Below are positions 286 through 55,057 of a stretch of DNA of 64,000 nucleotides, piece by piece. Source of the stretch: Sinonovacula constricta (Eukaryota > Mollusca > Bivalvia > Cardiida > Solecurtidae). The notes beneath the pieces are model-generated. The model had not been told where the DNA came from and did not search any database. It was given only the letters and a program-made list of their open reading frames with translations. Location: assembly GCA_007844125.1 (NCBI GenBank), contig CM017567.1, forward strand, positions 32,692,165 through 32,756,164, in the 5' to 3' direction. A program made the position numbers and the translations under genes. Numbering within the stretch: position 1 is the first letter of the stretch; each line of letters opens with the position of its first letter.

Positions 286-834
286 TTATTATAAGTATTT
301 TATAAAGTAATGTTAATTATTTACATTGTATTCTTGACATGTTCACAGAAGCAACAAAGAATAAGATATGAAACCTTGAAGATTTTAATTTCAAAGGTAA
401 CGGCATTTAGAATAGGTATTCACATGTAATAATATCTCCCCATATTGCCCTAATGACTAAGAATGCCTTTAATCGCGAAATGCAAACAGATTAGATGCGT
501 GGCTGTTATTATGTAAACGTTCCATAGTCACAGAGATCACAATGACAAAATAGTACACGAATAAAATTCGAATTCTTAACACGATAATTTCAATTCATTA
601 CTAGAAAATCCCAATAAATTATATGTAAACATTATCTATACAAGATGCAAATTTGGTCTGATGTTTCAATATTCTTAAGCGACATCCGGTTCGACATTTT
701 GAAGAAGTATTATGAACAGATGGGTAATGCTATATGAAATACAACGACGAACGGGCGATATATACAAAATAGTTATAATATTTTCAATTAAAGATACTTT
801 GCACATTTAAATAGATTTAAGTCTTCACTTTGCT

Positions 835-945
835 CTATTTCTCATGACAGTTTTGTTTTGGCTTTTATATTTGACTGACATGTAAATACATTTGTCATGT
901 GCCTTTTCTAATTTTAATATATGTTGCAATACTCATACGACCTTG
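835..945 (-). repeat. GTCGGCAAAAGG-family repeat fragment
   Basis: Reverse-complement fragment of the dispersed family: CATATGTCAAGGTCGTATGAGTATTGCAACATA, then GCACATGACAAATG and ACATGTCAGTCAAAT. It pairs with the right-arm copy, which is split into 45,880-45,912 and 52,950-53,050 by a 7 kb insertion. Confidence 0.7.
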
Positions 946-3821
946 ACATATGTTTTTTTTTTTATTTATTTCGTCCTAGAATACTGAAAATGACCGATGA
1001 CTTTGAAGGGAGTTTTCTAAACTTTAAACTTGTCATTTGTACTTGGATTTAATATTAGAAATTTCACTACTGACATTTCCCACATATATATATTTCTTTT
1101 ATGAAATTGAATTATGTACCAGTGATCTGTTAGTAACTATAACTTCATAAGGTGAACTTTTGCGCTAATGACTTTCCCACTTCTATAGAAATAACCTATC
1201 TGAAGTTTTATAAGGTGAGAAATAGAAACCTGCCGCTCTTACAAAAATGCGATTAAAAATACCAACAAAAATGGTATCGTAATAATATATTCTTAAAAGG
1301 GAATGCATGTTTTCAATCGATTGTACATAGTATCATTTAAGACCGTACAATATTATTAGTATTTTAAAGTTTGTTAAATGCAAAACCATCTGCTCAAACA
1401 GTGACATCAGTTAGCTTCCATATGAAAAAGTTAATGCAGATACAGATACTAATTTTAATTATACTGAGAGCTTAAAGTGTGAATTTTGTCTTACCTTACA
1501 AAATTAAGTACCTGACCTGAAAATAGTGATCTGCTAAAATACTAACGAACTGCGTTCACTTACTTGTTTCCATTTACATCCTACTGGAAATTAGAATGTA
1601 ACCTCCAGAGATTTTAACCTTTGGAAAAAAACGACAACAACGCATTTACATTTTATGAATGAAATTTGTGTCACGAATTAAATAACAACTTCCTTGTGTT
1701 ATATTATTATCATAGTTGTTGATATTACAATAATTCAAATGCCTCTTGTGGTGCTGATTGTATTGACTTTTAATTGTATTCTCTTTCAACTGTGTCTCCT
1801 TAAATAGTATAGTTTTTATATTGAAAAACATTTCATTTAGTTCTACTAATCATGTTTCAAGTATTTTCAGATTTATGAGGTAATGCCGGAATTATTGTCA
1901 AATATAAATCCGGACATTGACAATGTACTTTATAAAACCAACAAGTCGTATTATTATCACATCATTTCAATAAAGCTTATTTCACCTTTACACGAATCGG
2001 TGCTGATATAATTTCTCTTAGTTCTACAGACATCAAAGCCCACGGAACAATTTGTTAACATGCCTTTAACCCAACCATGAGCTCAATCTGTTAAATTGCA
2101 TTTTACAGGAAGGACTGTCTAGACACAGTGGTATCACATCCAATCCAAACATTGTTAAAATACGCTGTTTAGTGAGAATACGTCTTGGAAGGCAGTGAAG
2201 TTGATCAAGAGACAAAATTTATTAGGCGAGTCGGCGAAATTTTTAAAAGAATCACGTATTTTAAAAAGAGAGACTTAATGAGTGTAGCTTGTGTGACTTT
2301 ATAGTAAAACACACATATATTCTAATAATGAATGGTTGGTGTATAATTTGTTCGTTAGCTACCTATAAAGATGCGTTGACTAGGTGCATTCTGAAACAAA
2401 ATATACTTTGACTCATATAAATAAAGTGGCTGTCCGCTTTAAAATTTAACGTGATCATAAAGTTTAAACTCCTACCCATTCTTACCAGGTCTGTTGTTTC
2501 CTGCATTTAGTAAACTGATAAAATGGAGCGTTGAAACACTAAATTTATTTCTTATATGCTTAAATGTAAAAACTATGTTGTAGTACATAATCCTTAGATA
2601 AAATCTATATGCACATCCCAGTATCTATGAATGACTAGTGTTGCCCGAAATACAGGATGTGTGCATTTTTCGTGAAATCCGGAAATTCTGAATTACTGCA
2701 TGGATGCACAACTGAGAAACGATTACTTTCTAATCGAGGAAACGCTCTTAGCACACATAAACATAATAAATATGTTTGCGTAAAAATTAAGTATCAAAAT
2801 TGTAGAAATGAATATTTTGTTTAATCATAATTAGCATTTTATAGCCCAAAGGAAACAAATATAATCCAACAAATTTAAAAATTGTACATGAAACAAAGCA
2901 CCAACCATTATTAAGTCAGCTTTTAATATATAGGGAAGTATTTCTACGCTCACCTATGAATAGCGATTTCAATATGTCCAACTCGCGATACGTTTGTTCA
3001 ATTACCTTAATGAAGTTTAATGCTGTCTTTCTTGGTTCTTACACAGTAATGTAAGGCGACAGTAAATAGTTTTGCCCTCTAATTGAATTTTACTATCATA
3101 AATCCATAAATGTAACAGATATAAACGCGAACCTAGGAAAGTATTCATAAATCCTTTTATTTCGCTGTTTAAAATTTTGTTAGGAATTGTTAAGTTTACA
3201 AAATATATTTTGATATTTGCAAAGCTCATTTTTGACCTTAAAATTTACACACAGAATAAATACTATAAAATATTACCTAGACCTCTTCAGTAAAACAAAA
3301 TATTTGCTTATTTATTCTTTCTGAAAATGATTAATATCAGACTAAACAAATCTATCATCATCTGCTTGTTCATAAACATAAACAAAGAGTACATTTTCAC
3401 ATAGACTAAAGGTATAGCTACACGTTATTCACCATGATAATAAGATTAAAGTTGCCATATAGAAACTCACAAACGAATGCAAAGCATGTTGACACCGTTC
3501 TCGTTCAGAAGAGTTATGTTAACATAAATCTTACAATAATTGTTTCTATATTATTTTAACCTGCGATCCGATGTGTTTTATCGTTTAAAACTTTTATTTC
3601 TAACTGGTATTCAAGCTTAATTAGGCACCTGCGATTTATCAAAACAATAGAAACAGTTAGAATAAACGTCATTAGCTGATTAATATCTATAGAAAGGGCT
3701 AATCTATTATAATTAATAAGAAAACAACTTTTGCTGAATTGGAGTAAATGAAATAACAATACGATTGCTGGTAGTCAATATGAATTTCAAGAGGATAACA
3801 TAAATACCTCCAGACATGAAC

Positions 3822-3893
3822 GTTTTCGCTTCGACCGGGACTCGAACTCAATGGTTGAATTGTCTGCGAATCTATGAATTCGGAAACGGGCGA
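3822..3893 (-). repeat. tRNA-derived SINE head (relic)
   Basis: On the minus strand a B-box-like GAGTTCGAGTCCCGG is followed by GAAGCGAAAACG. The same layout (B box, then GGGGCGAAAAC) occurs at 61,500-61,590, so both probably belong to one SINE family. The A-box half is weak. It is present only in the left arm. Confidence 0.55.
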
Positions 3894-4589
3894 TACTTTT
3901 TACTTGTGAATACATTAAATGGAATGTCATTAGTGACCCTCATACTAACAAATCAACCGAAGTAAACAATTAAAACAAGTGCCTGCTTTTTGCTTGTGGT
4001 ATTCGATCATCCTGCTTTGTCCGACCATTGTTCACCATATTAAGTACCCAAGTCGATGACGGTTTTTGTTTTGTCCTAAACAAATTAACAACATATACTG
4101 AAAATTAAGTTGTCAAATGTTTACAAAGTTTACTCTAAAGCTATTTGAACTTTAATCAATAATTTCGTGATAAATTTCATGTATTCCATTTGATTTTGTT
4201 TTGGTTTTTGTATACAATATACTTATTATCAAACCAACAATTTTACGGCATCGTAAGCACTTGAAAATATTTATTAAATAAATTGCTTGATATGCCTATG
4301 GTTAGTTCATCCACTAAATAGAAATAAAACCAAGCTCTCTTATGGTATGAAACGGCGAACTGATTTCTGCATTTAATTTAAAGCGATAATGTAATGTAAC
4401 ATTCATTTTGAACTTAATCATGAATAGTTAAATATTAAATGTAATGCAAACAATGTTTATTTTTGTTGTTGTTTCACTTTCATGTAAGCCTAACAAACAG
4501 TTGCCAAGAAAGAAATATGTGTCAGTTAAATGGTTAAAATATAGGGCGTGTATTAAACGAAATAAAAGGCATAGCACTTTGTTGGAAGA

Positions 4590-4700
4590 ATAAGTAAGTA
4601 AAGAATGGGACCCGCGGTTGGAAGTGAACCAACAACCTTTTTAATACATAAATAATAGAATTGATTTCGCCAAACAAACAAAGATAAGCGCTCAATGTAC
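4590..4700 (-). repeat. Possible degenerate tRNA-like/SINE fragment
   Basis: The minus strand has GGTTGTTGGTTCACTTCCAA followed by CCGCGGGTCCCA, a B-box-like stretch in a locally GC-richer patch. The A box is not convincing. Confidence 0.3.
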
Positions 4701-7034
4701 CCCAAGTGCATATTTCTATAATGGTCAATAATAAGCCTGCGTAGTTATAAATAGTCACGTTCGTTTGACACTGGCCGACTTTATATGCAAAGCGTATATC
4801 AGGTTTGAACTATCATTGAAGAATATTTTTTAAAAGTAAATATCTGTCATTTGTAATACCAAATCATGTTTTCGTTAAATTTACCTATCCACTTCGATGA
4901 GTTGAAATTGAATAAAAACTGTAACCTACAACATCGGTCACATAAAAATCTAGTTTACGTTCTATTTTGTTTCATATAAATCTTTTACATAATTACTAAG
5001 AAATAACAAAACGCAACTTCTGTAAACCTTTATCAACTGATTTCCTGTTAAACTTTGACTCACGCGTGTTTATATCTTTGCATTCAATCTGATTCTACTC
5101 CTATGCGTAAAATATGAAGATCATATAATAAAAATATTAGGAATAAATCTTACCTCTAGCTCCTTCTTTATTCTTATTCGTTATCGCTTCTGATAAGACA
5201 ACAACATTCAGTATCAAATACGAAAGTTCAAGTTATGCTGTCATGGTCGTAGTAAAATACTCGGTAAAAGTGACATCATTTTAATTGTGGATTTCCATCC
5301 ATCATAATGCCATATGCCCGGCTTTGTCGTTTATATCTCCATTTCACATGTTGTCTCTGCCATTCCTCATTTTACTTCACAAAAATTATCGGTTGGAAGA
5401 TATATTATAAATATTTTATATTTATAGCTCGTGTTAAAAAGTCCCAAAATGATCAACATTTATAATAAACCAATATAAGACATTCCATCAGTGATGTATA
5501 AAGGATGCCAGTTTTGATTGTGTTAACCTGAAAAAATCTAAGATTTTAAATATTGATAGGAAAGTCAACCATCTGTCCTTGAGCTGTGTTAGGCCAGTAT
5601 GAACACGCTTGTTACGACCGGTGTCGCTATTTAAAATTTATTTATAAACTGGCATGTTTACTAAACGACGAAATGGTGTAACAGAAAGAACAAGCCATAT
5701 TTCTATTTATTCTTCTGTCGAAATAATTTATGTATTTCTCTTTGTTCTGTCATACCATTCTTTAATTCACATAAATTAAACATTTCTGTTATTATTTATG
5801 TAGTTTGCTTTAAGGTCATCAAAGATACGGACCTTACTTTCCAAATAATACAAAGAGTGTATGTTCATATATAACAACACGACAACGCTATATTCAAATG
5901 CAGCATTATAGCCTAGATGGAGTCTTAAAACTAGGGAAAGTCGAAACCAGTTAGACCTAAAGTATCCCTGAAGAGCAATTAAAAGTAAACTGTGTCGTTT
6001 AAGTGCCAAAAGCCTTCCTAACATTTTGTCAGAATAAAAATATATTGTGTTTTCCGATTTGATAAATGCCTCCAAATTTAAAGCTACAAAAACAAATGAT
6101 GAGTAAATAAATCATGAATGGAAAATACCTGACGGTTCGGGGCGAAATTTTACATATTCCTATTGTTAACATTTAATTGTAAAGAGTCCACGTTCATTAA
6201 CTTTTTCTAAATATCCCACCTAACATTAAACTATTAAATTATATAATTAGCATTGTGTTAGAATGTAATAAGAAAACAAATATCAGAAGTATGCACATAT
6301 ATATACATATATAATTGGTGTACTAAAATATCTGGTAATAACAACATGGCGCCTTCGAGATCCTACTAAACACATGTAGGCATACTTTTAGTTTCCATTA
6401 AAAGACCTTATCGCATGTCAATATTAATTTAATTCCAGACTATATACTCTTATCAAAAATGCATTAAAGAAATATATTCACACTTAATTCATATATTATT
6501 GCCTCGCACAAGTTTGACGAACTGTAAAGAAAGAATTGGGGAAAACATTTAAATACGTTTTAAGTAGTTTAAAGAAGCAATATCTATATTCTGTATTCTT
6601 TGCATTGAAAGTGATCGAATAAATCATGCTTTATATGAAATTAAGTGTAGAAATACATGACAATATTGCTTTTTTAACCTACACTTTGTATAACTAAATG
6701 TAATGAGGAAAAGTCTAACCCTTAGAAAAACATAGAGTTACCTTAAATTTAAACTGCAGCGACAGACACTTAATTACAAGATAGGCATATTTCTAAGTAG
6801 TTGCAATGACCTTTTGATAGATGCGTGCTTTATATAAAATGCCGCAAATAACATACAAGATACAGAGCATAAAGCTTAAAGTTTCGTTGGTTACATTGGT
6901 TATAATGTTTGCAATGTATTCAGAACACTTGAAAGTCCAGTTCATTGAGTAATGTACTAAAACCGTCGTATTAGAAATACTACAACTAAGTTTATCTGAC
7001 ATACCACAAGACAAATGCACAGACAGATTATTGT

Positions 7035-7770
7035 AAAATTGACAAAAGCACTGAGAAAAATTTAGCGACTTAAAACTATTAGTCGGCAAAATGACACAAT
7101 GAGATTCCTACACCTGGTTTGTGGCGAATTTCCCTATTTTTTAAAGTTTTTTTTTATTTAAAGAAAGTGTTAATGAGATATAAAACATTCCAATTAAGTG
7201 AGCAAACCAACAAGCGACTGCATTGATATGTCAAAGAAAACCATTTACAAATATAGCAATTACTATAATAAACTAAGTAAATGTGCACAGTCTGGAAAAA
7301 AAGAATTAGAAAAAAAGTAAGACATTCCGTAAGGAAAGATTGAAATAAGTACGTCAAAGCAATGTCGATAATATGAAGTAATAAATTGCTTAATACGACA
7401 GAAATGCAGTGCGTCATATATCAAAAACTAAGATATAATTTTCCAACAGGAAGGACATTTTAATCTTTAAAAAGCAATTAAAACTAGCGAAAAAAAATAT
7501 TTGTAAATCGATAATAGGCATAAGATAAAAATAAGGATTTTCCACGAATGAGAAGTTAAATAAGAAAAGTAAACAAAATCGGAAGCAATACATTCTGTGC
7601 AATTCCACGTTAAGGACTGCTCACGTTGTGTAGCATCAACGATATCGGGCACTACCGGAGAGATTAAGAAACATAATTATTTTATTGCTAGTCCAAATTA
7701 TGATTTCAACTAATCGTCTTTAAGTAGTACCAACAACCTGTCGGTCAGCGTGGTGACAGGCACATGGTAA
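7035..7770 (+). repeat. GTCGGCAAAAGG-family repeat, about 0.7 kb copy (left arm)
   Basis: It aligns in the same orientation with 39,090-40,000. Shared landmarks are the AGTCGGCAAAA / CCTGGTTTGTGG start, the TGTGCAATYYCACGT block, ACTGCTCA.GTTGT, the GGGCACKACYGGAGAGAT block and ACAACCTGTC.GGTCA. The reverse-complement mate is 34,960-35,660. It is non-coding: frames across it are poor and not shared by the copies. Confidence 0.65.
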
Positions 7771-8234
7771 CAGACATTAGCATTCCCCATTTCTGTAAGA
7801 TTGGAAAATGTTACCCATAAAATTAAATATTCTTATAATATTTCCATTCACAATTTAAACAGGGCATTCAGTGCAAAATAAATTGTGCAGTTTTCTGGCA
7901 ATCCTTAATAAAGTTTGATTGTGCATGGCAAAAACTAAATAAGTAATAACTAAAAAATCTTAATTTTATAAATATTCTTTAATATGATTTTAGATAACAA
8001 AAAAAAACAAACTCAATATGCATGTATTCCTATAGTTATATGTTAAATGATTAGGAAAGAAGGTTCAACTCAAAATTTCCATATTGCATCTTTGTCAAAT
8101 TGCTTTTCCTCCGGGCCAGTTGTTGTACATAATTTGTCTGAAGAGTTGTACCATGCTTTGGGTAATTGACAAACTAAATTTACAAACATTAATAAACAAA
8201 GATGTCGTTTTAAATTAATTTGGAAAAACCCTAG

Positions 8235-8345
8235 AAATAAATAAGAATATATGACAAAGTCCTATGAGCATTGAAACATATACCAAACCCTGAAAAGGCA
8301 CAAGCCAAAAGTGAAGGTAAAAACAATTCTGTGATGAGTGTAGAA
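8235..8345 (+). repeat. GTCGGCAAAAGG-family repeat fragment
   Basis: Contains AAGTCCTATGAGCATTGAAAC, AAAAGGCACAAGCC and AAGTGAAGGTAAAAACAA, as in the fuller copy at 29,720-29,990. Its palindrome mate is 33,990-34,125. Confidence 0.65.
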
Positions 8346-11204
8346 GATATGCTCACATAAGACGTTGCCTTACAGATATTTATGCAGGCATGTTGTATAT
8401 AAGCTATGCACACTTCTAAAATGGCTGTCTGCAATCGGCATTAGCTTTATTCAGTTTCCCTAGACAAATAAAGTTAAATGAACGTAAGGATGGAATCGCC
8501 TAACTGCAAAGCCTGAACATCAGCTAGTATTTATTGCTAGAGTGAAATAAAACATTGCAATGAAATAATAAATTCCAGGCACCTTATACAGTGCGTACAA
8601 GTGAATTTGAATAAATAATCATGAGTGCGATGTAACCGGTTCTCACCACTTTTCCATACTGTCGTATTGGTTAGAGGGATAAAACACTATGTCCTGGTAT
8701 GTGACAAACATCCCTGTAATGATGCAAGAAACAAAACTGCCTTCGACTTAGAAAAGGATCAACAATGTCTCTTTGGTGAAGTCTGATACATATCGACTAC
8801 AGCAGACGGAATGGCAGCTAAATGACACTGAGAGCTCGTTATGTAAGCAATTCTGATCGATACATCAATTTGAATACACAATGTAAAACATCAAGGAAAC
8901 AAAACTTGTACCTGGATACGTTAAGCAACATATAAAACAGCTCTATTATTTTAAACAGTTATTTCAATTGGAGACTTTAATGTGTTTTAGTAATCTATCA
9001 TCCAGTGTTCTTTTCTATTCCTTCAATAATCCAAGCGTTTGATTTCAATCTTGAGTGCTACAAAAAAGGTTTGATTTTCAATGCATTGTGGTCCAGAAGA
9101 GGTTTTAAATTAGCTGTAACCAACAGTAAGTTTGCTATTCCGAAGTATCGCCATAGAACAACGGAATGCACACCGTATAATGTTTCAACAATTGTGTCAG
9201 GTTTAAGAAATTCGATATACTTTTTAAATAGGCAAATGTATATAATTTATACATGTAACAACATATCGTTATGTTATTTGGAACATACTCTCCATAGCAA
9301 ACCCCAAGATTTTCTAATAATATTTACTGCATGAAATATATGTGTTGCTGCGGGTCAAAATACGTTATCTTATTTTACTTTTTGCTTTTGGTCTACTTGC
9401 GCCTGTCTGTTTTGGCAATATATTATATGCTGGAATTGAATGAACCTGAAAAAAAGTTAATAAGAACAATCCCTTAGCCATTAAATATTCTTTTCCTGAT
9501 TCTGCAAAAAAAAAAAATCAATGTTAAGTTTAAGAGAATACGACTGCATGGATATTTGATTTGTAACGAAAACGACTTTTATGAGAATGTCGATTAAATT
9601 CGATTTTTATGATGGCTACTTTATAGGTGTTGTTGTTGTTATGTTTCTGTCCTCGTTAATGTTGTTAATATTGTTGTTGATGTTCTTGTGTGTGTATTCA
9701 TATTTACAATGAACCTAACACTAAAAGATGAAAATAATTTATGAATTTTTTAAACTAGTTTGCACAAGCTTAAAGATGGTATCCGACACTTGTCAATTTG
9801 ATCCAAATGTTGATATTTCTCAAATAAACAAATAATTGTAAGCAGTCAATGATAAATGCTCACTCGCCTATTGTAAACATGTGTTTCCTATCCAAGCCAC
9901 GCTGCAGAGATAGCTATTTTGAAAGATAGAAAACCACGTTACCATTTACTTTTATATAGTTATCAGGGTAATACACTCTGACGTCGATTTGTATTTTAGC
10001 ATCGGACTAATGTCCCGTTTTTTGTGGAGTTGGAAATACTGATATTTAAAGTATTTTTGCGATAAGTATCGCCCAGCAATAAAGTTAGTAGTTCAAAATT
10101 GTCTTTATAACGACAAAATGATGGTTTTATGCCCAAAGCGGCGGTTAGATATTGGTACATGTATTTAATATAGGCAAACTGTCGGATACCACTTTTGACA
10201 CTATTGTAGTTTCGCCGAAAGTATTGTGACGATTCTGTTAGTCTCTAAATAAAGCAAATACATGGACCAGACCAAAAAGCAAATTTGTTTTACAGGGTGT
10301 AAAAAAATATCAGTTTAGGATTTTGTCGTTTAGAATTTTGTTAATCAAACAAGAATAACTACACCACCTACTGCACGGACTGACATGAACCGGATTATCA
10401 CTAACTGTTTCTTAATTATTTTAGTATTTCAGAGGAATGATTTTTAGTCAACAATCTAACTCAGTAACTATCTACCGATGAAAGTAATAATTACATCCAG
10501 ATCTAATAACAAGAAATAATCAAAGCAAATAAATGCTGTTGAGTTAAAGTTTAAAAACACTTTTGCCTAGCAACAAACTGACAAATACAGTAAAACCGTC
10601 TTGTATTGATTTTCTTTAAAAATGCCATCAAATGTTCATGGCTTAAAATTATATGCAATACCGAATTATCTTCGGAGGCATGGGAAAAGGTCCGAATACG
10701 TATAGTAGAAGAGAGCATAACATTTAACTCGTAACAAATTAATTTAAATTAAACAAATCAAGCACACACATAACATTAACTAGTTTCTGTCGTTGAAACG
10801 CAATCATACTTCATTTAATGTATTTAGCAGATTGCATAAGACAAGTGCGCTGCCATGCATCATTAAACGGGCAAGCCGATAAGAAACAATATTATTCATG
10901 TAAGACACCTCCGCTTATAAAGGATTTAAGAATCATATTGTCGCATTATCTTCTTCTGTATAAATTCATCAGATGTCAATAATGATGATGAAATCAAGTG
11001 CATTATATTTTTGCTAACAAATGCTGAATTATCACTAGGAGAGCAAGGATTTCTTAAACAAAACGAAGAATTTATTACGAGATGCATTTTTTATTGTTTA
11101 AGTATCGGACACAATTTATATACGTTGTGTCAGGGTGGAGTATGTATAAGGCGCATCTTCAGTCTTGATCAGTCTAGATCGTTACTGTATAAATAAGGAA
11201 ATAT

Positions 11205-11440
11205 AACACTGTCCTTTGAGTATTGCAACATGTACCAAAATTTGAAAAGGACGCAACGGCATTCACAGGTAAGCCAGCAGTAAAAGTTAGTCTTTGAAGG
11301 GACATTATACAAAGTAAGCAGACCTATTAGTTATCGTCACAGAAAGACTAGTCAGCAAAAGGGACCGATTGACTGGGGTGCTTAAACCGGTTTTACAGAG
11401 CTATACCCTCGCACTTTATGAGGTCTTTCTCAAATGCAAG
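11205..11440 (+). repeat. GTCGGCAAAAGG-family repeat (left arm)
   Basis: It runs from GTCCTTTGAGTATTGCAACAT, through GGCATTCACAGGTAAGCC and GTCAGCAAAAGGGACCGA, to GGTGCTTAAACCGGTTTTAC and CCTCGCACTTTATGAGG. The mirror copy is 29,470-29,690, and a same-strand sister follows at 29,720-29,990. Confidence 0.7.
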
Positions 11441-13860: not shown

Positions 13861-13908
13861 ATTTGTGTGTATGCCTGCGTGCGTGCGCGCGTTAGTGTGT
13901 GGGTATTG
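13861..13908. repeat. (TG)n-rich microsatellite, left-arm copy
   Basis: A TG-rich run interrupted by GCGTGCGTGCGCGCG. The right arm carries its inverted counterpart at 24,573-24,636 as a longer CA-rich run, so the tract predates the inverted duplication and has since changed length. Confidence 0.8.
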
Positions 13909-16829: not shown

Positions 16830-17150
16830 CGTTTACTTTATTGTGTCTTAACGCCTTATCTCCCAAAATACACGTTGTTTGAATTTTTTATATGTCCTTT
16901 ATGAAGCTGCAAAGCAGATTTTTTTTAAAGAATCTTGAAAGTGTTTTGAGATTCGTATTCAGATTAAATTAATATCGAATCCGACTGCCGGTAATATTTT
17001 CACAGAACAAGTACGGAAAAATTGTACGCATTTAAACTGAAGCTTTGCATATTGTATTTTACGCTTTTTATTTTGCTATGAAACCAGTGTCTTGCATGTA
17101 GAAAGTGACTTTAAGACAATCTTTGTAACGGTAGAAATTATATAGCCAAG
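16830..17150 (+). repeat. Dispersed repeat copy 2 (left arm)
   Basis: Homologous to positions 1-285 (same strand) and to 21,155-21,425 (opposite strand). The inner part, from the GAAGCTGCAAAGCAG block to AATCTTTGTAACGG, is best conserved. Non-coding. Confidence 0.75.
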
Positions 17151-18662: not shown

Positions 18663-18759
18663 AAAGCATAGTTGATATGTTCATATAGATTTTTAAGTTT
18701 AAATATTAATAAATAAAGGTGCTATTCTTAGTCAGAGGAATAATGATAAGTGCATGATT

Positions 18760-19550: not shown

Positions 19551-19642
<92 letters not shown>

Positions 19643-38498: not shown

Positions 38499-38612
38499 CA
38501 CAGACTTACACACAAGTGCACACGCAAGCACACACATGCACACACACGCACACACACAGACAGACGCACACACAAACACACGCACATACACACAACACAA
38601 CACACACACACA
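38499..38612. repeat. Imperfect (CA)n microsatellite
   Basis: CA-rich run broken by single substitutions. The minus-strand frame through it is a low-complexity artefact. Confidence 0.9.
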
Positions 38613-38899
38613 AGATAAATAACTGAATAAAATGTACCGGACTAGCAATTCTAAAGAATCAGGTTGTACAGAACATCCTTTATGAAATAGACATTCGCAG
38701 AGAATTCCTATAATCTTTTTGCCATAGCACGTAATGTATAGCTAGGAAATGTATGATTTGTAAGAGTATAGCCTCTGTATGTCTGGCTAGGCAGCTAATA
38801 ATAGATAACAATAGCCTTGTTGAGGAAGTTATATATCCTATCATATGGAATTCTTCATCTTTTATCATTTTGTGTCACAAAACTACAATAGCCAGCAGA

Positions 38900-43100: not shown

Positions 43101-45879
43101 ATATTTTATAATATTTATTTCTGTGTAATTTTATAGTCCAATATCAAGCTTCGCAAAAAAAAAACAAAGTATATATTGTTAACTTTATTCCTTACATAAT
43201 TTTAAATAGAGAAATAAAACGGATTCGTGAATACGTTCTTCGGTTCTCGTTTATGTCTGTAACATTTATGGATTTATGTACGATATATATAATTAAAAGG
43301 CAATAAAATAACTATTTATTGTCTTTACTGCTACCTAACGTTATTGTGTAAGACCCAAGAAAGTCATTTTTATTATGTTCTTGAACAAACGCATCGCGAC
43401 TTGGACATATTGAAATCGACATCCATATTTGAGAATTGAAATACTTTCAATGTTTATTAAAAGCGGACTTAGTAATATTTTTTCTTTATTGGTGTTTAGT
43501 TTCATGTGCCATTTTTAGCGCACACAAGAGTAACAAAATGACACCCGTGTATATTATTATAGAGATTCTTCCAGAATTATAATTACACCCGTGTATATGA
43601 TTGTATTGATTCTTCCAGGTTTAAAAGTTTAAGGAATAGATCTTAAAGCGGTTGTAAATGCAATTATTGCATTTATTTATTTTCTCTTTGTTTTGCTTCT
43701 GGGCTATAAAATGCTCATTTTGTTTTGAAAAAATCAATTTAAATTTTGATACTTAATGTTTACGCAGACATATTTATAATTAAGTAGTGCTTCGATATTT
43801 GAAAAATAAATAGAATTGATAATATTTTTTATAAATGATTATTTAAATGTTTTTCTTTAGTTTCTTGAATGAATATTGTTGGTTGCTTTGGTCTTGACTC
43901 AAAATAATTGTAATACATGCTCGGTTATAATGGATTTGAAAAAAAATAGGTTTCCTTGCTGGGTCTTATTAAAAAAAGTTGAGCATGCTGTCAGAATTAT
44001 GGTAAACAGGCATTTATATCATATGAAGTCTACTTTTAGGGTAAAGCGGAAAAGACTACATTTTGTTATTCTTCGTCGTTTCCATGATTACAACGCAATG
44101 GTTTCTCAGTTGTTCACCCATGCAACAATCCAGAATTTCCGCATTTCACAAATAAATGCAACCATCACATAGTTCGGGCAACAATAATATTCATAGCTAT
44201 TTACTTCGAGGGATGTGCATATATATTTCAACCTGCGATCATGAACTATAACATAGTTTTACATTTAAGCATACAAGAAATATATTTAGAGTTCCATTTA
44301 AGCATAGTTTACTAAAGGCAGGAATCAACAAACGATTAACATATTAAAAAGAATAAACCGATAAATGTAGTAGATTGTATTGTTTTAATTTTAAGTGTTG
44401 GACGTCAATATGGAGTAATGTATATTTGAATGATTTTTTTATTATATTTCTAAGAATGGGTATGAATTTAAACTTTGTAATCGCGACAGGCTCTTTATTT
44501 ATATGGATCAAAGTATATGTTGTTTCAGAAGGCGCCTAGTCAACGCATCATTATAAGTAGCTACCAAACATATTATACACCGACTACTCATTACTAGAAT
44601 GCATGTGACTTTACTATAAAGTCACACAGGCTACACTCATTAAGTCTATCTTTTTAAAATACGTGATTTCCTCTTTGCTCTTACGTCGACTTTACTAATA
44701 AATGTCATCTCTTGATCAACTACACTTCCTACCAAAACCTTTTCTTACTTAACAGCGGTTTTAACAATGTTTGGATTGGATGTGATTCTACTGTGTCTAG
44801 ACAGTCCTGTAAAATGCAATTAAACAGATTGAGCTCATGGTATGGTTGAAGGCATGTTAACAAAGTGTACTGTGGATTTTGATGTCTGTAGAACTAAGAG
44901 AAATTATATCAGCACCGATTCGTGTAAAGTGAAGTTAGCGTTATTGAAATGATGTGATAAAAGTCGTTCTGTTTTTATAAAGCGTGTGTTGTCAATTCCC
45001 GGACTTTAATGTGATGATAATACCGGCATGACTTCATAAATCTGGAAATACTTGGAACATGTGTAGTAGAACTGAATAGAATTGCTTGTCAATATAAAAC
45101 GATACGATAAAAGAGACACTTGTGAAAGAGAATACAATCAATAGTAAATAAAACGAGCACTAGCAGAGGCATGCGAATTCTTGCAATATCAACAACTATT
45201 ATATATAACTCAATGAAGTTGATATTTAATTCGTGACATAAATTTTATTTATAACTTTGTAAATGCGTTGTTGTCGTTATTTCCAAAAGGTTGCAATCTC
45301 TGGAGGTTACATTCTAATTTCAAGTAGGATGTTAACGGAAACAAGTATGTGAACGCAGTTCGTTATTATTGTAGCAGGTCACTGTTTTCAGACCATGTAC
45401 TTTATTTTGTAAGGTTGAAGCAGATAATTTTTGCATTAAACACACTTTTAAAACACAACTAAGAATGTAATATTGAACGGTATTAAATGATACTAGACAA
45501 AATCGATTGAAAGCATGCATTCAGGCGGTAATGTTTTCCTTTTAAAGAATATATTATAGATACCAGTTTTTTGTGTTGGCATACTTAATTGCTTTTTGGT
45601 AAGAGCGACAGATTTCTTTTCTCAACATTACAGCAAAGGTCCAACCTTGATGTAAGTTTATAAGCTTACACAGCACCATCAACTGGAGAAATAATCACCT
45701 GCACTTTCATGAATGTGTAAATATTTATAATGCTTAAGAATGTGATAATATTGCCAGTAGTGGAACTTGTAATATTTAATCCAAGTACATCTGGCAAGTT
45801 TAATGTCGAGAAAACTCCCTGAAAAGGCATCAGCCATTTTTATTTCAGTATACTAGGACGAAACAAATAAAAACATATG

Positions 45880-45912
45880 TCAAGGTCCTATGAGCATTGC
45901 AACATACAGTCC
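45880..45912 (+). repeat. GTCGGCAAAAGG-family repeat, left half of split copy
   Basis: AAGGTCCTATGAGCATTGCAACATA, then diverges. The remaining half resumes at about 52,950. The uninterrupted partner is at 835-945. Confidence 0.75.
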
Positions 45913-45929
45913 TGGCACCATACCAGTTG

Positions 45930-46125
45930 TCCAAAACATCGCATATCGTGCGTATTTCTATCGTAAAGGTATCGTATGGCAACGTAGTCTATCGTGTAAC
46001 GTAATAGGCCTATCGTAAAGTAACGTAACGAGCCATATCGTAAATGATACATCGTACTGTAACGGAACGTAACGCTTTTGAAAATACCGTGGTATCGTAA
46101 CGGAACGAAAGTATGGTAACGTAAC
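45930..46125 (+). repeat. CpG-rich degenerate array of ATCGTAACG-like motifs, array 1
   Basis: Short variable units such as TATCGTAAAG, TATCGTGTAACG, ATCGTACTGTAACGG and GTATCGTAACGG follow one another with no fixed period. CpG is frequent although the surroundings are AT-rich and CpG-poor. The array ends GAATTGAACTGTGCCTTG. Two overlapping minus-strand frames crossing it are by-products of the motif. A related array lies at 52,722-52,928. Confidence 0.8.
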
Positions 46126-47001
46126 ACGAGGAGAATTGAACTGTGCCTTGAAATAATTCTTTGATACATAGATACATATATTGTGACATTTTTCTAATGA
46201 CATTATCTTGGTCATACAGAAGTTCACTAGAAATTTAAAAGCCATAATAAATGCCTTACAAAAACAAAGAGAAGTTTATGGTTGTAAGCAGAAACTAGAC
46301 TATATACATTTCCGGTACATACATACTTTCGATTAGCAAATTAATATTGCACACCTTCGAACTTATTACTTGAATGACAATATGCGTAGATTGAATATGA
46401 ATGGACGTTTAGAAAATATTCATGAAAACTAGGATTCTGGTTATTTGCCCACGTTTTTATGGGAAATAAAGAGCAGTAAGACGTAATTGGAATAAACATA
46501 CAGCTGTAAAAAACTAGCTATGATACAATCAAGATCTATGTCAGATTATTGAAAAGAGGTTTGTCTCAAATATGGTATTCAAATGATACGGCTCATATAC
46601 AATGAACATTGTTGATAAATAACTGGACATTGTGAAATCATCTCTGATATTCCGACAAGTTAGTTAATTGTAAAGCTAGCTTACTTATGTCATCGCTGTG
46701 CACAATCAACACTGATAGAGTCTCTTCGCCAATTTTTTTAAACGTGTAAATTTTATACATATTTATGCGAATTTTAATAAACTTGAAAGCAGTTAAGTGC
46801 TCGACGGAAATTCAATAAAAGTTCGTTCACAGGTGTAGCAAACAAATTAATATAAAGCCACTATTCTTCTGCCAGTGATGTGATCAAAAGTTTAAGGTGT
46901 GAATGTGTTTGTCAAAACAATGTGCTAGTATCATAAATAACAGTTAACATCTGACATCATGCCCTCTTTATTTCCGTACATTTTCCCGCCCTGCCAATCA
47001 C

Positions 47002-47009
47002 GTGCACGT
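47002..47009 (+). repeat. Target-site duplication, left copy
   Basis: GTGCACGT directly precedes the transposon's terminal TAGGGTGG. An identical 8-mer follows the other end at 50,033-50,040. Confidence 0.85.
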
Positions 47010-47261
47010 TAGGGTGGCTCTTAAAATGGAGATTTTTCAAAAATCAATATATTTTAAAGTCTTACCCCTCAAATGTGTTCCATTTGATGAGAAAACACTT
47101 TGTGGAAAGTTTAAACAATATATTTTGATATTTAGAGGTAGCTCAATGACCTTGAAAATCAGAAAAATAGTAAAAAATAAATAAAATGTCTATATTTTAT
47201 ATGTATACTTTTTTTTCAACTGTACATCACTTTTTGTTCAAACAGTTTACAATACTTTAGT

Positions 47262-49281
47262 CTAAATGTTTCCACCAAAACAAAACAGAGTTTTAGGGCA
47301 CATTAGTGTTTGTTTCCTGCTATCCGGATATAATCTCCGGTGTTCCTCAACGACTTGCAGTAAGAACTGCAGTTGAGTTTCATTTTTGGTTAACAGTCCA
47401 CTATTCTCCTGAATCAGAGCAACACCACGCTCAGCTTGATCACTTCAACTCTTAGAGACTCCAGTGCTTCTCTTGCTTGTTTGAAATCGTCTCTATCATG
47501 CCACGCATCTGGATCAACATCGAGAAAGTCATGCGGAAAATCCATCATTTGAAACAGTTTCATAGACCTTGGTGTAACAAAGTCATGTAGGTTGTTGTCT
47601 GGGAGTGATTTAAGATCAACTGATGCTTTCTTGGAATGTTGTTCATCTTGGTCAACGTCCATCTTTAACGCCTCAATCATACTTCGTTTTGTAGCGGAGC
47701 TGACATTACAATAAAAATACGCCAGGCCGACAAGTTCTGGAGACAGGTACCATAAGTGGTTGAATAACTTCAGTGCTGTGGCCTTCGAGATGTTTTCATG
47801 AATTGATTTGTACTCAAGAAGTGACATCAATAATTGTACGTCATTAGAAGGTGCACACACTGCCTGAGGTGATGAGAACCACGCTTTCAAGTAGACACGA
47901 ACTACAAACACACACACGTCACGCAATCCTCGTTCTTCTGCAGGGGTAAGCTTGAACTGAGCCTTGAACATCCAGATTTTGAGACTGTATATAACCGTGG
48001 ACATCGAACGTACATGGTGCATTGCACCTGGTGACATGAATGACACTCCACGTGCAGGAGCTGAACCAAGAAACACGATCACAAGTTCCAGGAATTCTTT
48101 ATAATCGTCTCTTGGCAGCTTCTGTTCAAGATACGTGCTGGCATAATGTATGGTGCTTTGTCGTATGTCTTCCACAAGACTTGCCACATCAGAAGAACAC
48201 AGGCACCAGCAAGTCTACCAGTGTTGGAGCTAGCGGGCTTGAACCCTGTTGCCAATTTCCCAGTCTTCAATTGCCTCAAATACAGCAGCAGCCTGAGCTG
48301 CACCAGTCGCAGATTCAAGCTTAGCAACTGTCAGTAGTTGTGAAACATTTTTTTCCTGTCGCTAACTCTGGGAGGCTGTCAACCTTTTCCTTTCCATTCA
48401 AATCTTTAATAAGCTTTCCATCCCAGTGAACTAAAGAGGAACATTACTCTGATTTTCTTCCTTTATTACTACAACTCTCTTTTGTCGGAATTCCGATCTG
48501 TTTCTTCTTATTGTGGATCTGTTAATAGCAAGTTCATTAACATTTTGGCCCAAGCTTTTTGCTGTTTCGGTAATGACCATTGTAGCCTGTCGGTCTGATA
48601 CTTTAGTAATATCTAGAGTCATTGCAAGTTATTGTGTAATAACATTTTTCACCCTCGTTTTCCTTTAACTCCACGAGTAACATCACCCCAACAGCCCCTA
48701 CACATTCTTCATCCAATTTGTCACCGTCTTCTGCTGAGCTGGTATCTGTTGTATCAGATCTTCTTGTCTGCATTCCTATTGTTCTTTTTGTTACCCTTTT
48801 CTCCTTATCAGCTAGCGCTTGATCTACTCCGACCATTGATCGTTTTCTTCCTTTTTTCACGCTGGGCTAGCAAAAGATCATTATCTTCTTGTAATACTGA
48901 TAGACTGGTAAGAGCGTTGGCATGGGCAACATCAAAAAGTTCATCAAGCTTGGAAACAAAGTCTGCCTCTTTTGCAAGTTGAGTTGGTGAATTGGTTCGA
49001 CCTTTGTTTTTCTTTAAAAGTTTCCACTCTTCAAACACTTTCTCAAGCTTAGTTTGACAGTTCTGGTGATCCTTTATTGGAAGTCTAGCTTTCAACCAGA
49101 ACTTTGCTATTTCTGTAATAGTAACTGCTGATGATTGTTTAATTGTTTGTTTTAGTTCAATATGGTGATGTAGAAAAAGTCCAAGAGTCATACGCAATGA
49201 TGGTAGTTTGCTGCCCGTTAAAACGGTTACTGGTTCACCAAGAAGATACAACTTAGTTTTGGATCTTGTTGCCTTTGCCAT
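47262..49281 (-). pseudogene. Degraded DDE-type transposase gene
   Basis: The start chosen is the ATG at 49,281 (MAKATRSKTKLYLLGE). The N-terminal part is open for 157 codons, then the frame moves near 48,810, 48,610 and 48,430. HWDGKLIKD (about 48,410-48,430) looks like the first catalytic-Asp block of a family of invertebrate transposases I know from many uncharacterised database proteins. SSNTGRLAGACVLL (about 48,190-48,230) matches the block after the second Asp, but here FDTT is replaced by FKPA, so that Asp seems lost. The longest intact piece (47,414-48,187, 257 codons) carries PRDDYKEFLELVIVFLG, PGAMHHVRSMSTVIYSLKI and LWYLSPELVGLAYF. A further frameshift near 47,430 precedes a C-terminal LTKNETQLQFLLQVVEEHRR stretch ending at the TAG at 47,262. 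The gene is dead through several frameshifts. Confidence 0.8.
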
Positions 49282-49358
49282 TGTTTATGTCTTAAAGTAA
49301 TGTACATTACAGATACAAGTTCTTCATTCTTAATATTTTATTGACACTTAATTGTGTG

Positions 49359-49392
49359 TATTATTATTATTATTATCATTATTATTATTAAT
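49359..49392. repeat. (ATT)n microsatellite
   Basis: ATT repeats with one ATC interruption, inside the DNA transposon upstream of the transposase start. Confidence 0.9.
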
Positions 49393-50032
49393 AAATAATC
49401 ATTATCAAAATATTGTTATCTGAAACTTTTATTGTACTGTTTTGTTCAACATTCAAGTTAACTTGCCAAAAGAAGTGTGTTTACATAAGAAGTAAATTAC
49501 TTTATACTTGCTTGGTAAGCATCAGCTTAGAATCCACATTCCTTTCCTGATCATTTACAAAGCATCATTTCGCCATAACTTTAAATCATTTTTAATTTGT
49601 TCACACTGTTATTTTTTATATTTATAGCTGATTAAAGATAGTTCATGTATAATCTTTGCTTTCAGTGCTTTGTTGCTATTCTGTTCTGAATCACCACTGG
49701 AACTGGTGTTGTTTGTAACTTGATTTCTCCCATTGTCTGTCGTCAAACCATAATTGAGTAATAACAATGTGTGTTATTCAAGTTGAAGGAAATGTCAATT
49801 CTGCATGCAGTTTGTAATATAAACAAAATCTAAACCACTGAAGCTTCACATGATAATATCCTGATTTTTTCAACTAAAAACCAGAAAACCTAAAATTTCA
49901 ATGTCATTGAACTACCTCTAAATATTGTTTAATTGTGCTTAAATTTGGCCAAATATGTTTTTTTACATAAAGGAACACAATTAGAGGGTAAGAAACGAAA
50001 AAATCAAAAGTTGCAAAATAAGGACCACCCTA

Positions 50033-50040
50033 GTGCACGT
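50033..50040 (+). repeat. Target-site duplication, right copy
   Basis: GTGCACGT directly follows the transposon's terminal CCACCCTA. Confidence 0.85.
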
Positions 50041-50252
50041 GTGTTAATTCCAATTAATTTTAGCCGTTCGTTGTGTTGATTGTTGTGATCCTTAACGTGT
50101 TGACCGGAGGTGTTAATTGGTCTTTTCTTAAATCGATTTCCTCTTATAACGAAATGGTCCTTTGTAAATCTTTTTAGGATGATGAAGCCATTTACATAAT
50201 CTCCTAAAATAACTAGCGCACATCGGCGTGTACCTTGACGGCAGTATGGATA
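50041..50252 (-). pseudogene. Candidate host exon interrupted by the DNA transposon
   Basis: On the minus strand a pyrimidine tract and TATTCTTTTCAG precede position 50,252, and the following frame is open: YPYCRQGTRRCALVILGDYV, then NGFIILKRFTKDHFVIRG, then NRFKKRPINTSGQHVKDHNN. It runs into the 8-bp target duplication. If the transposon and one duplication copy are removed, the frame continues on the other flank (below 47,002) for roughly 20 codons before a stop. The composition is protein-like, but I recognise no family and found no clear upstream exon. If it is real, the insertion has broken its coding sequence or entered the last exon. Confidence 0.35.
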
Positions 50253-51059
50253 CTGAAAAGAATACAGTTGAGGTAACAATAGAAAATGATATAATATCTA
50301 ATCATTGCAAAAAGCAAGTCAGCAGACATATATAGTCTATACAGTCTCCTGTCAAAAGGACCTCTATGCCTTTATAAAACTAGGGTGGATACCTAGCCAT
50401 GGAGAAAGAGTTATAATTAATAAAATAAATATAATAAATAACGCAAACATTCAGATATTTGGATATGTTGGTAGGACTCTCAGGTCAATATTTAATGCTA
50501 CACTATTGTTAGTTTAGAATAGTTTTTTTTTAATTTAAACTAGGATCAAGCTACCCTGGTAAAGAATGCAAGCTCACCAATAGGAACTGTCCTTAATGTG
50601 ACATAGAGAAAAACTTTAACCACGTGCTGTTTTGGTTAAGGCAGCACACAATAGCAAGAGATGAGTTACAAAGACCTATATTATTCACACGTGTCTTTGC
50701 TTTTTGTACCAGCGGAAAATGGCAGATTTAATAAAAATGCAACACTTTTATACCTAGAAGATATTACATACATTAAATTACATTTAATTCACTACTAAAA
50801 TATATATTATATACGATATACTAAACTACCTGAATTACCAACCAAAGCTTAACTACTTACACACTTTTCCCGTACTTTTTTCACTTTAAAACATCCTCGT
50901 AACTAGTGTGTTATTTAACGTGTTATTTGTTCATAATCATCTGATTTCATGTCGACTTTTAGTTCAAAAAGTGCCAGCTCTATTAAGGAGTAGAAAACAT
51001 TTCAATGGTGAAAATGTAAAGAACAAATCTGAGAGGTGTGAATGACTTTAAACAAAGAG

Positions 51060-51420
51060 CAGTCATAATCTTCCGCCAAATTGGGGTCCAGCCAATCAGA
51101 GAATGGGTTTACTAGGAACGTTTAGATTTTGAAGAGACTTCACCCCATCACGTGTCTTGTGGGTTTGGAAACTTTAGTCATTGTTTGATTTGGATATGAT
51201 ATCGGTTGGAGATTGTATTAATTCAGTTTATGTAGGTGTTATCCTATATTATTAATGAAATATTTAATGAAATGCATTTAGTCTAAAAAATTAAGAGCGC
51301 GTATTATAAGTTCTGCTTTGTCGAGAGGGGTGGGGGTGGCCTTATTTTCTTCACCTAGGTAGCTGGATCCGAGTCTGAGTCTAGTAATATTCAATCATAG
51401 GCTACATTATGATGGTGAGT
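51060..51420 (+). promoter_or_regulatory. Promoter-like patch with CCAAT box (speculative)
   Basis: GTCCAGCCAATCAGAGAATG contains a textbook CCAAT box (51,092-51,098), with ATTGG in inverse orientation just upstream. Around 51,409 the sequence ATGATG is followed by a consensus donor GTGAGT, as in a short first exon. No downstream coding exon was recognised, and the neighbouring sequence is a LINE relic, so this could equally be transposon sequence. Confidence 0.2.
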
Positions 51421-51539
51421 TCCAATCTCCATATTCATATCAGAGATTTTGCTTAACATTTGTATTTTAGTATTTTAATCTATATTTTTCTTTGATAAGT
51501 TCTTGTCTATTCTTGCCTGTAAATTGTCAGAAATGCTTG

Positions 51540-52030
51540 TAAATAACTAGTAGAGCCGCGGTAAATATTCATTGTTGATCGGCAATATTGTTCTATTTGA
51601 ACACATTTTATGGGTTATAATTAACAGTTCGCATCTAATATAGACTGTCTATTGTCTAGTATAATTTTGGCCTTATTTCTTCATTCTGTTGATTTTCAAT
51701 CATAAAAACTTCTGCTCCTATAGCATTTTTGTTTGTATCCTTGCTACCATCGGTGTAGATGTGGATGTTAGTAGCGAATACCTCAGTACTCAGTATTTGA
51801 GTTGAGTTGAGTTTAACTAAGGGAATAATCTTATCGATTGCTTCGATTACGTCTTCTAAATTTGTTTAATGTTAATGGATTTGATCCCTACATGGAACGG
51901 ATTAAGTGGAGGTGTTAATTTGTCGGTTATTTGTCTAATTTTGTGTCAAAATAATACAATTATTATTTAATAGCTCTGTTTTGAAATCGTTTTAGTTTGT
52001 CAAGTTTCTTTTTCCCGATTGACCCATATG
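51540..52030 (-). pseudogene. LINE (non-LTR retrotransposon) RT/RNase H relic
   Basis: Reading the minus strand from 52,028, YGSIGKKKLDKLKRFQNRA matches the WGS...L.KL.R.QNRAL block after the fingers-palm region of non-LTR reverse transcriptases. About 210 bases further, ATNIHIYTDGSKDTNKNAIGAE (core 51,740-51,760) matches the first catalytic block of an RNase H domain (IYTDGSK...GAG). About 150 bases on, IFTAALLVIYK resembles the FQAELLAI helix of RNase H with its Glu lost. Order and spacing are right for a LINE ORF2 C-terminus carrying RNase H, as in the Jockey and I groups. Stops and frame shifts separate the pieces, so it is an old fragment. The 5' part and tail were not found. Confidence 0.75.
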
Positions 52031-52721
52031 CTACTTTACCTTACCGAATTTTTATTTAAATAGTGTTTGAATAAGGGTTGAGTATGAGACAATAATATGT
52101 TTCTGATGTTATTTATTTTTTAGCAGCTTGTCCATTTATGTAGGTTATTTGGTACATGCACCTACAAATCACGTAAGCGATTATAAGCTCCCACACAGAT
52201 TGCCACTTTTATGACACAACGTTTCTATTCAAATTAGACGGGCAGTGGTCATTTAGCTGAAGTGCATAACACCTGCATCTGGTCTGAAGTCATGTCATAC
52301 ATGTATGAAGAACCCAGCACACATAATCTGGCTGTGAAATTTCACTTCAGTAAAACGCAGATACGGATGCGGGGAATAAGGGTAGAAAATTGGAATACGT
52401 GTATAGAAGAATGGTGTAAGAATGTTAGTAAATTACAAATTTAAATTAATTTGTCTTAACATAGTACATTTTTACACACTTGTTCAATGTTAAAGCAGGG
52501 TATCATATTGCCTTCACTTACTTATCATTTGCCTACACATTTTACCATTAAGACGGAAATATTTGTATTGTCTCATTTGAAAGGTGTGAAAAAATTACTG
52601 CCTATATGCGCAGGAAGTGGGCCCATAGGGCAGAACGATTTGGACTAAACCGAGTTGGTACAGTATAAATAGACTGATTGAACCTTTACTTTAACAATAT
52701 GCCGCTTTTGCCATGGTATTT

Positions 52722-52928
52722 CGTGTAACGTGACGTTAACGGAAACCGTACAATATGTTGTATCGAAGCGTACACCGTTTCGCATCGTAACGTGTAGATT
52801 TTCTATCGTAATGCATATTGTGTATGGTATCGAACCGTAACGTGTATGGTATTGTGTAAAAACCGCTCATGGTATCGTACATCGAACGTAATCGTACCGG
52901 ACGTAAATCGTATCGTGTGACAACTGTT
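52722..52928 (+). repeat. CpG-rich degenerate array of ATCGTAACG-like motifs, array 2
   Basis: Units such as CATCGTAACGTGTA, CTATCGTAATGC, GTATCGAACCGTAACGTG and ATCGTACATCGAACG recur irregularly. It has the same orientation and character as 45,930-46,125. It ends GTTCCAGAACTGTATCTT, similar to the end of array 1, and abuts the right half of the split GTCGGCAAAAGG-family repeat. Confidence 0.8.
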
Positions 52929-52949
52929 ACGGTTCCAGAACTGTATCTT

Positions 52950-53075
52950 AAAAAAAAAGCACATGACAAATGTATGTACATGTTAGTCAAATATAAAACA
53001 AAAAAACAAAACTGCTTCGAGAAATATAGCAAAGTAAATAGTTACCGCTTTTGAAAGTCAGTCGGGAAAAAGCCT
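52950..53075 (+). repeat. GTCGGCAAAAGG-family repeat, right half of split copy
   Basis: GCACATGACAAATGTATGTA, then ACATGTTAGTCAAATATAAA, then AAAGTCAGTCGGGAAAAAGCC. It mirrors 835-890 of the left arm almost base for base. Confidence 0.75.
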
Positions 53076-53079
53076 AATA

Positions 53080-54390
53080 TGAACACTCATTACTGTTAAG
53101 CTAAAATCAATCAATTTATTAGAATAACTATTATTCGACAAATTTTCTGAATAACATCTGAGCTAAGTCAATTTGCTTACAATGTCACGTAGCGGTATAA
53201 CATGTTACTAGAATCCTGAAAAGGACATGACGATGCTGCAAAACAATGTAGAGGCCCCACCAGTGAAAAACTAGGACTACTTTTTGTTATTCTCCGAGTG
53301 TTATATAGACAAATCAGTAGTAATGACTACTTATCAAACAAAACAAATCTTGTCATTTAACCCGTCTTAAATCAGAAAAGTGAAACAGAGAACAACAATA
53401 TGTGTACCGACGAAAAGCTAAACTCATTATTTTCGACTGACGTTTATGAATCAGCAATTAAATTCAGAATGTGTATTTCTCACGTCATGTGTCTACCATC
53501 GCGAGTTCTTACTGGTGTTTGGTCAACGTTTTTTTCAGGTTTTCATGAATATTCTTATCTGAAATTTTACCGAAGATTTCATTTAGAAATATTCTATTCA
53601 CACGCATTAGCACTGTTTGATGAGAAAAGTTAGCTTCTCTTTTAGTTCTAACAATGTCTGAATCATACAATAAGTTTGACTATGGTAAAGAGGCTAATGA
53701 CCAAATTACGTGCATTTAATAAGATGCAAAATTTCAAGTCAATATAGTGTGGTTTGAAGGTTAGAATTTATCACAGCAAATCTCGATAATCAAGTGTGAA
53801 GGATTACTTTCTCTTATTACCCATCTTTCATTGAGAAAGGGTAAATATTCAGTTGAAATAACGATTATCTTATTATATTTCAATTTAAATCAAATAATTT
53901 ATTTAAATAAATCGTGCACTATGTTTATTAATTAAAGTCATTAAAAATCATTTCAGTGTCATAAGTTTTAGTTCAATGCAGGATTTTGATTATTTTAACA
54001 GTCAATAAGAAAGCTCGGATCTTGTAAAATAATCCCTTTATAAGAGAATCTGATATAGTTTACAGAAAAGAACGAACTTCTTCCTAAATTGCACACAGGC
54101 TGCATTAGCACTTTTTCTAATTGAGGCTTTTAAAGAAACCTGTTGAACGTGCAAAACTAATAATTAAAACAAACAAAAACAACAATATGTTTAAGGTTCT
54201 GTTAAAATAGCAAGGACTTATATATTTCTAAAAGATACTTAAGATAATGGATTTTCAACTTTTATGACAGCAAATTCACCATCTTGTTAAAATGTTGTTG
54301 CAATCTAAATTTTATAACTTTAGAGGAAAACATACAGACTTAAAATCTTTTTAAATGTAAAACGTACTTACAGTTAAAATATTTTCGTAT
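53080..54390. other. Right-arm stretch without clear left partner
   Basis: AT-rich. The left arm passes from about 830 to 770 while the right arm runs through this block. The open frame at 53,400-53,633 (plus) has no recognisable domain. Nothing else is seen apart from a short (ATCT)n at 54,388-54,403. Confidence 0.5.
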
Positions 54391-55057
54391 CTATCTATCT
54401 ATCATCGTTGCATTTCATATAACATAGCTCATCTGTTCATAAATATTCTTCAAAATATCGAACCGAAAGTCGCCTAACAATATTAAAAAAAAAACAACAG
54501 ACCAAGTTATCATGTTGAATACATACAGTTTACACTTAATTTATTGTCTTTTTACCAGATCTATAATGAACTGAAACTATCGTGTAAGGAATTCGACGTT
54601 TATTCTTGTCTAATGTTGCCAGTGTGATCTCTGTGGCTATGAAACGTTTACATAATTGCAGCACAGCATCATATCTGTCTGAATTCCGAGATTTAAGACA
54701 TTCTTAGATTATTTCGGGCATGTGTTATACCACTACATATTTTTTCTGTTCATTTTGGAATACTTCTTCTCATATTGCCCGTGATAAAATATATCCTTGC
54801 AAGATGTGTCATAAACATTTGTTCTTTCTTAAAAACGGTCAACTATGAAAAGTTAAAATATTTTTCTTCCTTTAACGATGATACACTATTAAATTCTTTT
54901 TCATTGCGTCAAATATTATACACATGAAGTACACTATTTGATAAAAATATGATATGCAGAAATTTAAATTTATCTTATTCTAGTGCAAAGTGACATTTCT
55001 GTTTCATGTTTCACCTAACCTTCTTGTTTTATTTTATGTCACATATAAAGTAGTCAC

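What the first reader, a model, noticed from the sequence alone, without database searches (positions are those of the whole stretch)
400..54770. Giant, ancient, imperfect palindrome spanning most of the window
Dozens of blocks pair in reverse complement and strict mirror order around a centre near 19.1-19.4 kb. They run from the spacer out to 500-760 with 54,400-54,660. Conserved blocks look about 80-90% identical, for example about 10 differences in 110 bases between 17,821-17,930 and 20,350-20,460. Arm-specific transposon insertions show it is old. It is far larger than typical foldback transposons, and the left boundary lies at or beyond the window edge. A transcript through it could form very long imperfect dsRNA, a substrate for ADAR or Dicer. 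Origin by fold-back template switching or an inverted segmental duplication is inference.
Basis: seen in the sequence. Interest (0 to 1): 0.85.

Follow-up and report, generated by a model that had tools for sequence, protein, structure and literature searches.

The report
Old inverted duplication, no visible function
A stretch of DNA was copied in reverse beside itself long ago, and the two copies have since drifted apart and come to hold different extra sequence, including a jumping gene; the structure looks real, but nothing found here shows that it does anything.

Summary
The window contains a collinear, imperfect palindrome: left arm about 303-18,801, right arm about 19,918-54,874, spacer 18,802-19,917. 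25 of 28 left-right inverted BLAST matches lie on one mirrored chain; 20 dinucleotide shuffles gave none at that cut-off. 13,375 positions pair at 83% ungapped identity, K2P 0.19. The right arm is nearly twice as long because of right-only sequence, including a 7.0-kb element with terminal inverted repeats where the left arm runs through. No convincing exons were found (not every ORF tested), no significant strand asymmetry between arms, no excess of long identical tracts. Best reading: an old inverted segmental duplication in a eukaryotic, probably animal, genome (inference), decaying without recent arm-to-arm gene conversion. A dsRNA/ADAR/Dicer role is neither supported nor excluded; the longest perfect duplex is 52 bp. 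Identity is patchier than chance (variance 2.4 times binomial in 200-column windows), so local constraint or old conversion remains possible. The outer left boundary, copy number elsewhere and assembly correctness were not tested: the genome search did not complete.

The parts
303..18801 (+). Left arm of the imperfect palindrome (24 blocks, 13,375 left positions paired); its outer end may lie beyond the window
18802..19917 (.). Central spacer, 1.1 kb, not matched between arms, with a perfect (TA)n run of 42.5 units at 19,555-19,639
19918..54874 (-). Right arm, reverse complement of the left arm, 35 kb long because of right-only sequence
45907..52943 (-). Right-only 7.0-kb DNA-transposon-like insertion with terminal inverted repeats (CAGTcCTGG...) and TA on both sides; its ORF at 47,417-48,214 (-) has 77 relatives at E<=0.001
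22862..24150 (+). Right-only 1.29-kb stretch; the flanking left blocks overlap by 14 bases (compatible with, not proof of, a target duplication); relative outside the palindrome at about 57.0-58.6 kb
25061..27640 (.). Right-only 2.58-kb stretch holding a tRNA-like, SINE-like sequence near 25,660-25,950 (recognised by eye from recalled features; ARAGORN listed no tRNA in the window)
36943..40251 (.). 3.3-kb right-arm stretch facing only 89 left bases; 39,091-40,092 is an inverted, more diverged (61-65%) copy of parts of 34,860-35,670 (left partner about 6,980-7,750)
9626..9944 (.). Left-only 319-bp stretch; the flanking right blocks overlap by 11 bases
8344..8813 (+). Block with the highest identity, 90% to 33,210-33,673 (-)

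Best explanation
A largely non-coding segment of at least about 18 kb was duplicated in inverted orientation next to itself, leaving a spacer that is now 1.1 kb (the structure is shown; the event is inferred). The two arms then diverged to about 0.19 substitutions per aligned site and came to hold different extra sequence, more of it in the right arm (shown; which pieces are gains and which are losses in the other arm is shown only where an element is recognisable). The palindrome as such most likely has no function; it may persist because divergence, insertions and the spacer removed the near-identity that makes long palindromes unstable (inference).
For: Mirrored chain of 25 of 28 inverted matches, none at that cut-off in 20 shuffles. 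83% identity and K2P 0.19 over 13,375 positions. Of 23 junctions between blocks, 6 show right-only sequence with left blocks overlapping by 2-32 bases and 1 shows left-only sequence with right blocks overlapping by 11. The 7.0-kb insertion has terminal inverted repeats scoring 22 against a maximum of 13 in 200 shuffles of its ends. No convincing coding signal. Identity does not vary with distance from the centre (rho 0.08, P 0.51, 66 windows).
Against: Identity is overdispersed: variance 1.5 times binomial in 50-column and 2.4 times in 200-column windows, with 100-column tracts at 93-96%, so parts may be constrained or once converted. The codon scan has somewhat more segments scoring 20 or more than shuffles (22 against a mean of 12.8, maximum 22, in 60), so traces of old coding sequence are possible. 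Block overlaps can also come from alignment over-extension. Copy number elsewhere untested; no reads seen.
Confidence: 0.8

Rival explanations
1. Functional long-hairpin RNA locus: a transcript through the spacer folds into imperfect dsRNA that is cut by Dicer or edited by ADAR.
For: The geometry allows it; 25 perfect duplex stretches of 21 bp or more, longest 52 bp; 100-column tracts of 93-96% identity.
Against: Six mismatch comparisons between arms all have |z| below 1.3, and the pooled count (798 against 856; z about -1.4 by hand) is not significant; arms of 18 and 35 kb with much unpaired sequence; no excess of long perfect runs over shuffled columns, a null that ignores gaps. The asymmetry test is weak.
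Confidence: 0.05
2. Assembly artefact: two highly diverged haplotypes joined in inverted orientation.
For: Erroneous scaffolding can create artificial palindromes (PMC7953838, passages).
Against: 17% divergence with large arm-specific stretches exceeds animal heterozygosity known to me (recalled); no N in the window.
Confidence: 0.06
3. Two independent insertions of one large dispersed element in opposite orientation.
For: The arms contain smaller dispersed repeats, and one arm segment has a further diverged copy at 39.1-40.1 kb.
Against: 25 of 28 matches form one chain over at least 18 kb with no convincing coding content; the third copy covers about 1 kb only. Terminal features at the arm ends were not tested.
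Confidence: 0.07
4. Palindrome maintained by arm-to-arm gene conversion, as on mammalian sex chromosomes.
For: Patchy identity.
Against: No perfect run beyond 52 bp and mean identity 83%, against over 99% in mammalian palindromes (PMC8981503, abstract start in listing).
Confidence: 0.02

Closest known systems
Mammalian sex-chromosome palindromes
   Same: Large inverted arms
   Different: Those keep over 99% arm identity by gene conversion (PMC8981503 and PMC3723533, abstract starts in listing); this one is at 83% with no long identical tracts
Caenorhabditis inverted paralogous gene pairs
   Same: Inverted duplications in an invertebrate; arm identities quoted in the passages include 83.4% and 95.7-100%
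   Different: Those involve gene pairs and appear maintained; one locus has 2,207-bp arms (PMC1803023, passages). Here no gene was recognised in the arms, which are at least 18 kb
Gene-bearing palindromes of Adineta vaga and Folsomia candida
   Same: Collinear reverse-complement blocks on one chromosome
   Different: Those were defined by collinear annotated genes (PMC7953838, passages); here no gene was recognised in the arms
Foldback transposons
   Same: Inverted-repeat arms with a spacer
   Different: Smaller and mobile (recalled); mobility of this structure was not tested

Membership tests
Inverted segmental duplication | Two long collinear copies in opposite orientation at one locus | tested here: met
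   25 of 28 matches mirrored
Inverted segmental duplication | Sequence not a high-copy dispersed repeat | not tested
   The genome search own did not answer
Conversion-maintained palindrome | Near-identical arms or long identical tracts | tested here: not met
   83% mean identity; longest perfect run 52 bp
Foldback / TIR transposon | Defined ends with target-site duplication around the whole palindrome | not tested
   The left end may lie outside the window
Long hairpin RNA (hpRNA) locus | Transcription and phased small RNAs | not testable with these tools
   No RNA data held; an indirect strand-asymmetry test was not significant
Inverted paralogous gene pair | Coding exons in both arms | tested here: inconclusive
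   Best codon-scan score 34.5, reached by 8 of 60 shuffles; 22 segments of 20 or more against a shuffle mean of 12.8, maximum 22. 20 arm ORFs gave 0 Pfam matches above cut-off; not all arm ORFs were tested

The most novel reading that the evidence does not exclude
The unevenly conserved tracts (93-96% against a mean of 83%) are under selection as paired sequence, making this a giant imperfect hairpin RNA locus or a structure kept for long-range pairing.
Probability: 0.05. Interest if true: 0.6.

Novelty: new member of a known kind. Interest (0 to 1): 0.3.

Why it matters
It is a clear example of an old, apparently non-coding inverted duplication whose arms serve as each other's empty site, so some of the insertions and the divergence since the event can be read from one sequence. 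It also shows a long palindrome that decayed rather than being homogenised.

Tried and rejected
Coding arms: a codon-substitution scan gave top segments of 5-50 codons on both strands (the longest, 50 codons at 3,586-3,735 (-), lies in an ORF without a Pfam match). Against 60 column shuffles the best score is ordinary (8 of 60 reach it), while the number of segments scoring 20 or more equals the shuffle maximum (22; mean 12.8). Pfam: 29 distinct ORFs tested, of 277 of at least 50 aa in the window; 0 matches above cut-off. Four ORFs had only sub-cut-off matches, best PP-binding_2 for 48,811-49,284 (-), 20.6 bits against 32. In one search most ORFs lay in insertions or outside the arms, so searches were added for the arms.

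Selenoprotein link: one SECIS_1 match at 39,857-39,920 (-), 39.4 bits against a cut-off of 35, in right-only sequence; the related stretches at 34.9-35.1 kb (inside) and about 7.6-7.75 kb (inside) gave none. tRNAs: none (bacterial-code setting). Terminal inverted repeats: 12 one-arm stretches tested, 1 exceeded its shuffle maximum, 2 more exceeded only the 95% level, 9 did not. Transcription asymmetry: not significant.

Literature: one search found 0 papers. Searches (palindromes, inverted repeats, hairpin RNA; mollusc SINEs) were seen as listings, two of them capped (15 of 17, 8 of 36); no listed title or abstract start describes this locus. Passages only were read of PMC1803023 and PMC7953838.

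Organism: not identified. The ORF in the 7-kb element has relatives in Artemia franciscana (best 63% identity) and in unnamed sources, best 85%; as a probable mobile-element protein it does not place the host. A mollusc was only a guess from recalled SINE-like features and base composition.

Full report
Observation. BLAST of the window against itself gives 35 inverted matches at E<=1e-5. Of 28 that join the two sides of 19,360, 25 fall on a single mirrored chain with 9,857 of 10,106 bits; the 3 off the chain involve two dispersed repeats and one local duplication. Twenty dinucleotide-preserving shuffles gave no match at that cut-off, best 41.9 bits. I chose 24 blocks (23 of the 44 inverted matches, and 1); aligned globally they contain 13,375 distinct left positions paired, 83% identical without gaps, 971 transitions and 1,296 transversions, K2P 0.19. 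Global alignment flatters identity, so the true divergence may be higher.

Anatomy. The left arm is about 18.5 kb, the right arm 35 kb, the spacer 1.1 kb with a (TA)n run of 42.5 units. The length difference comes from right-only sequence. Of the 23 junctions between neighbouring blocks, 6 have right-only sequence where the left blocks overlap by 2-32 bases, and 1 has left-only sequence where the right blocks overlap by 11; this is the pattern expected of insertions with target duplications, but overlaps can also come from alignment over-extension. One further junction (-238) is a local duplication, and the remaining 15 have gaps on one or both sides without overlap and could be insertions or deletions. 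The clearest case is 45,907-52,943: terminal inverted repeats (score 22; maximum 13 in 200 shuffles) with TA on both sides, at a place where the left arm runs through. The other 11 stretches tested did not exceed their shuffle maximum. The stretch 22,862-24,150 has a 75% relative at 57.3-58.6 kb outside the palindrome.

Content. Ten stop-to-stop frames of 110 aa or more exist in the window; three lie in the arms outside the 7-kb element (5,776-6,111, 8,981-9,334 and 27,410-27,820), three in that element, one in the spacer and three beyond the palindrome. A codon-substitution scan of the paired arms found only short segments; its best score is reached by 8 of 60 shuffles, but the 22 segments scoring 20 or more match the highest of 60 shuffles (mean 12.8), a slight excess that might be remnants of old mobile-element genes (the cause is inference). 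Twenty arm ORFs gave 0 Pfam matches above cut-off, as did ten chosen mostly elsewhere (one ORF is in both sets). The ORF at 47,417-48,214 (-), inside the 7-kb element, has 77 relatives at E<=0.001, which fits a mobile element (inference).

Evolution. Identity is uneven: variance 1.5 times binomial in 50-column windows and 2.4 times in 200-column windows, but unrelated to distance from the centre (rho 0.08, P 0.51) or to GC (rho 0.07, P 0.60; 66 windows). The longest perfect duplex is 52 bp and 25 reach 21 bp; shuffled columns, a null that ignores alignment gaps, give a mean of 46 such runs and a mean longest run of 45. There is therefore no sign of recent conversion. The six mismatch comparisons are balanced, |z| below 1.3, and the pooled comparison is 798 against 856, z about -1.4 by hand; no significant transcription-linked asymmetry, which is weak evidence against strong germline transcription.

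Interpretation. The simplest account is one inverted segmental duplication followed by largely independent decay and insertion. Mammalian sex-chromosome palindromes are held above 99% identity (PMC8981503, PMC3723533: abstract starts in the listing), and Caenorhabditis inverted gene pairs look maintained (PMC1803023: passages); this locus differs by its lower identity and by the absence of recognised genes. PMC7953838 (passages) warns that scaffolding errors create false palindromes; the divergence and arm-specific stretches argue against that here, but reads are needed. No absolute age is given, because neither the species nor its mutation rate is known.

Verdict. A striking structure of an ordinary kind.

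Noticed in passing
39857-39920 (-): Rfam SECIS_1 match, 39.4 bits (cut-off 35); no selenoprotein frame was looked for.
   Followed up: partly
34860-35670 (+), 39091-40092 (-), about 6980-7750 (-): Three related copies of a segment of about 1 kb; two are palindrome partners, the third is a more diverged copy in right-arm-only sequence.
   Followed up: partly
22-289, 16874-17141, 21186-21445: Dispersed repeat of about 265 bp, one copy in each arm and one at the window's left edge.
   Followed up: partly
853-957, 8239-8312, 11193-11313, 29744-29848, 33968-34115, 52944-53044: Short dispersed repeat of about 100 bp; two of the three left-arm copies lie in blocks paired with a right-arm copy, so those probably predate the duplication.
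   Followed up: partly
62354-62574: Long (AC)n microsatellite, 98% matches, outside the palindrome.
   Followed up: no
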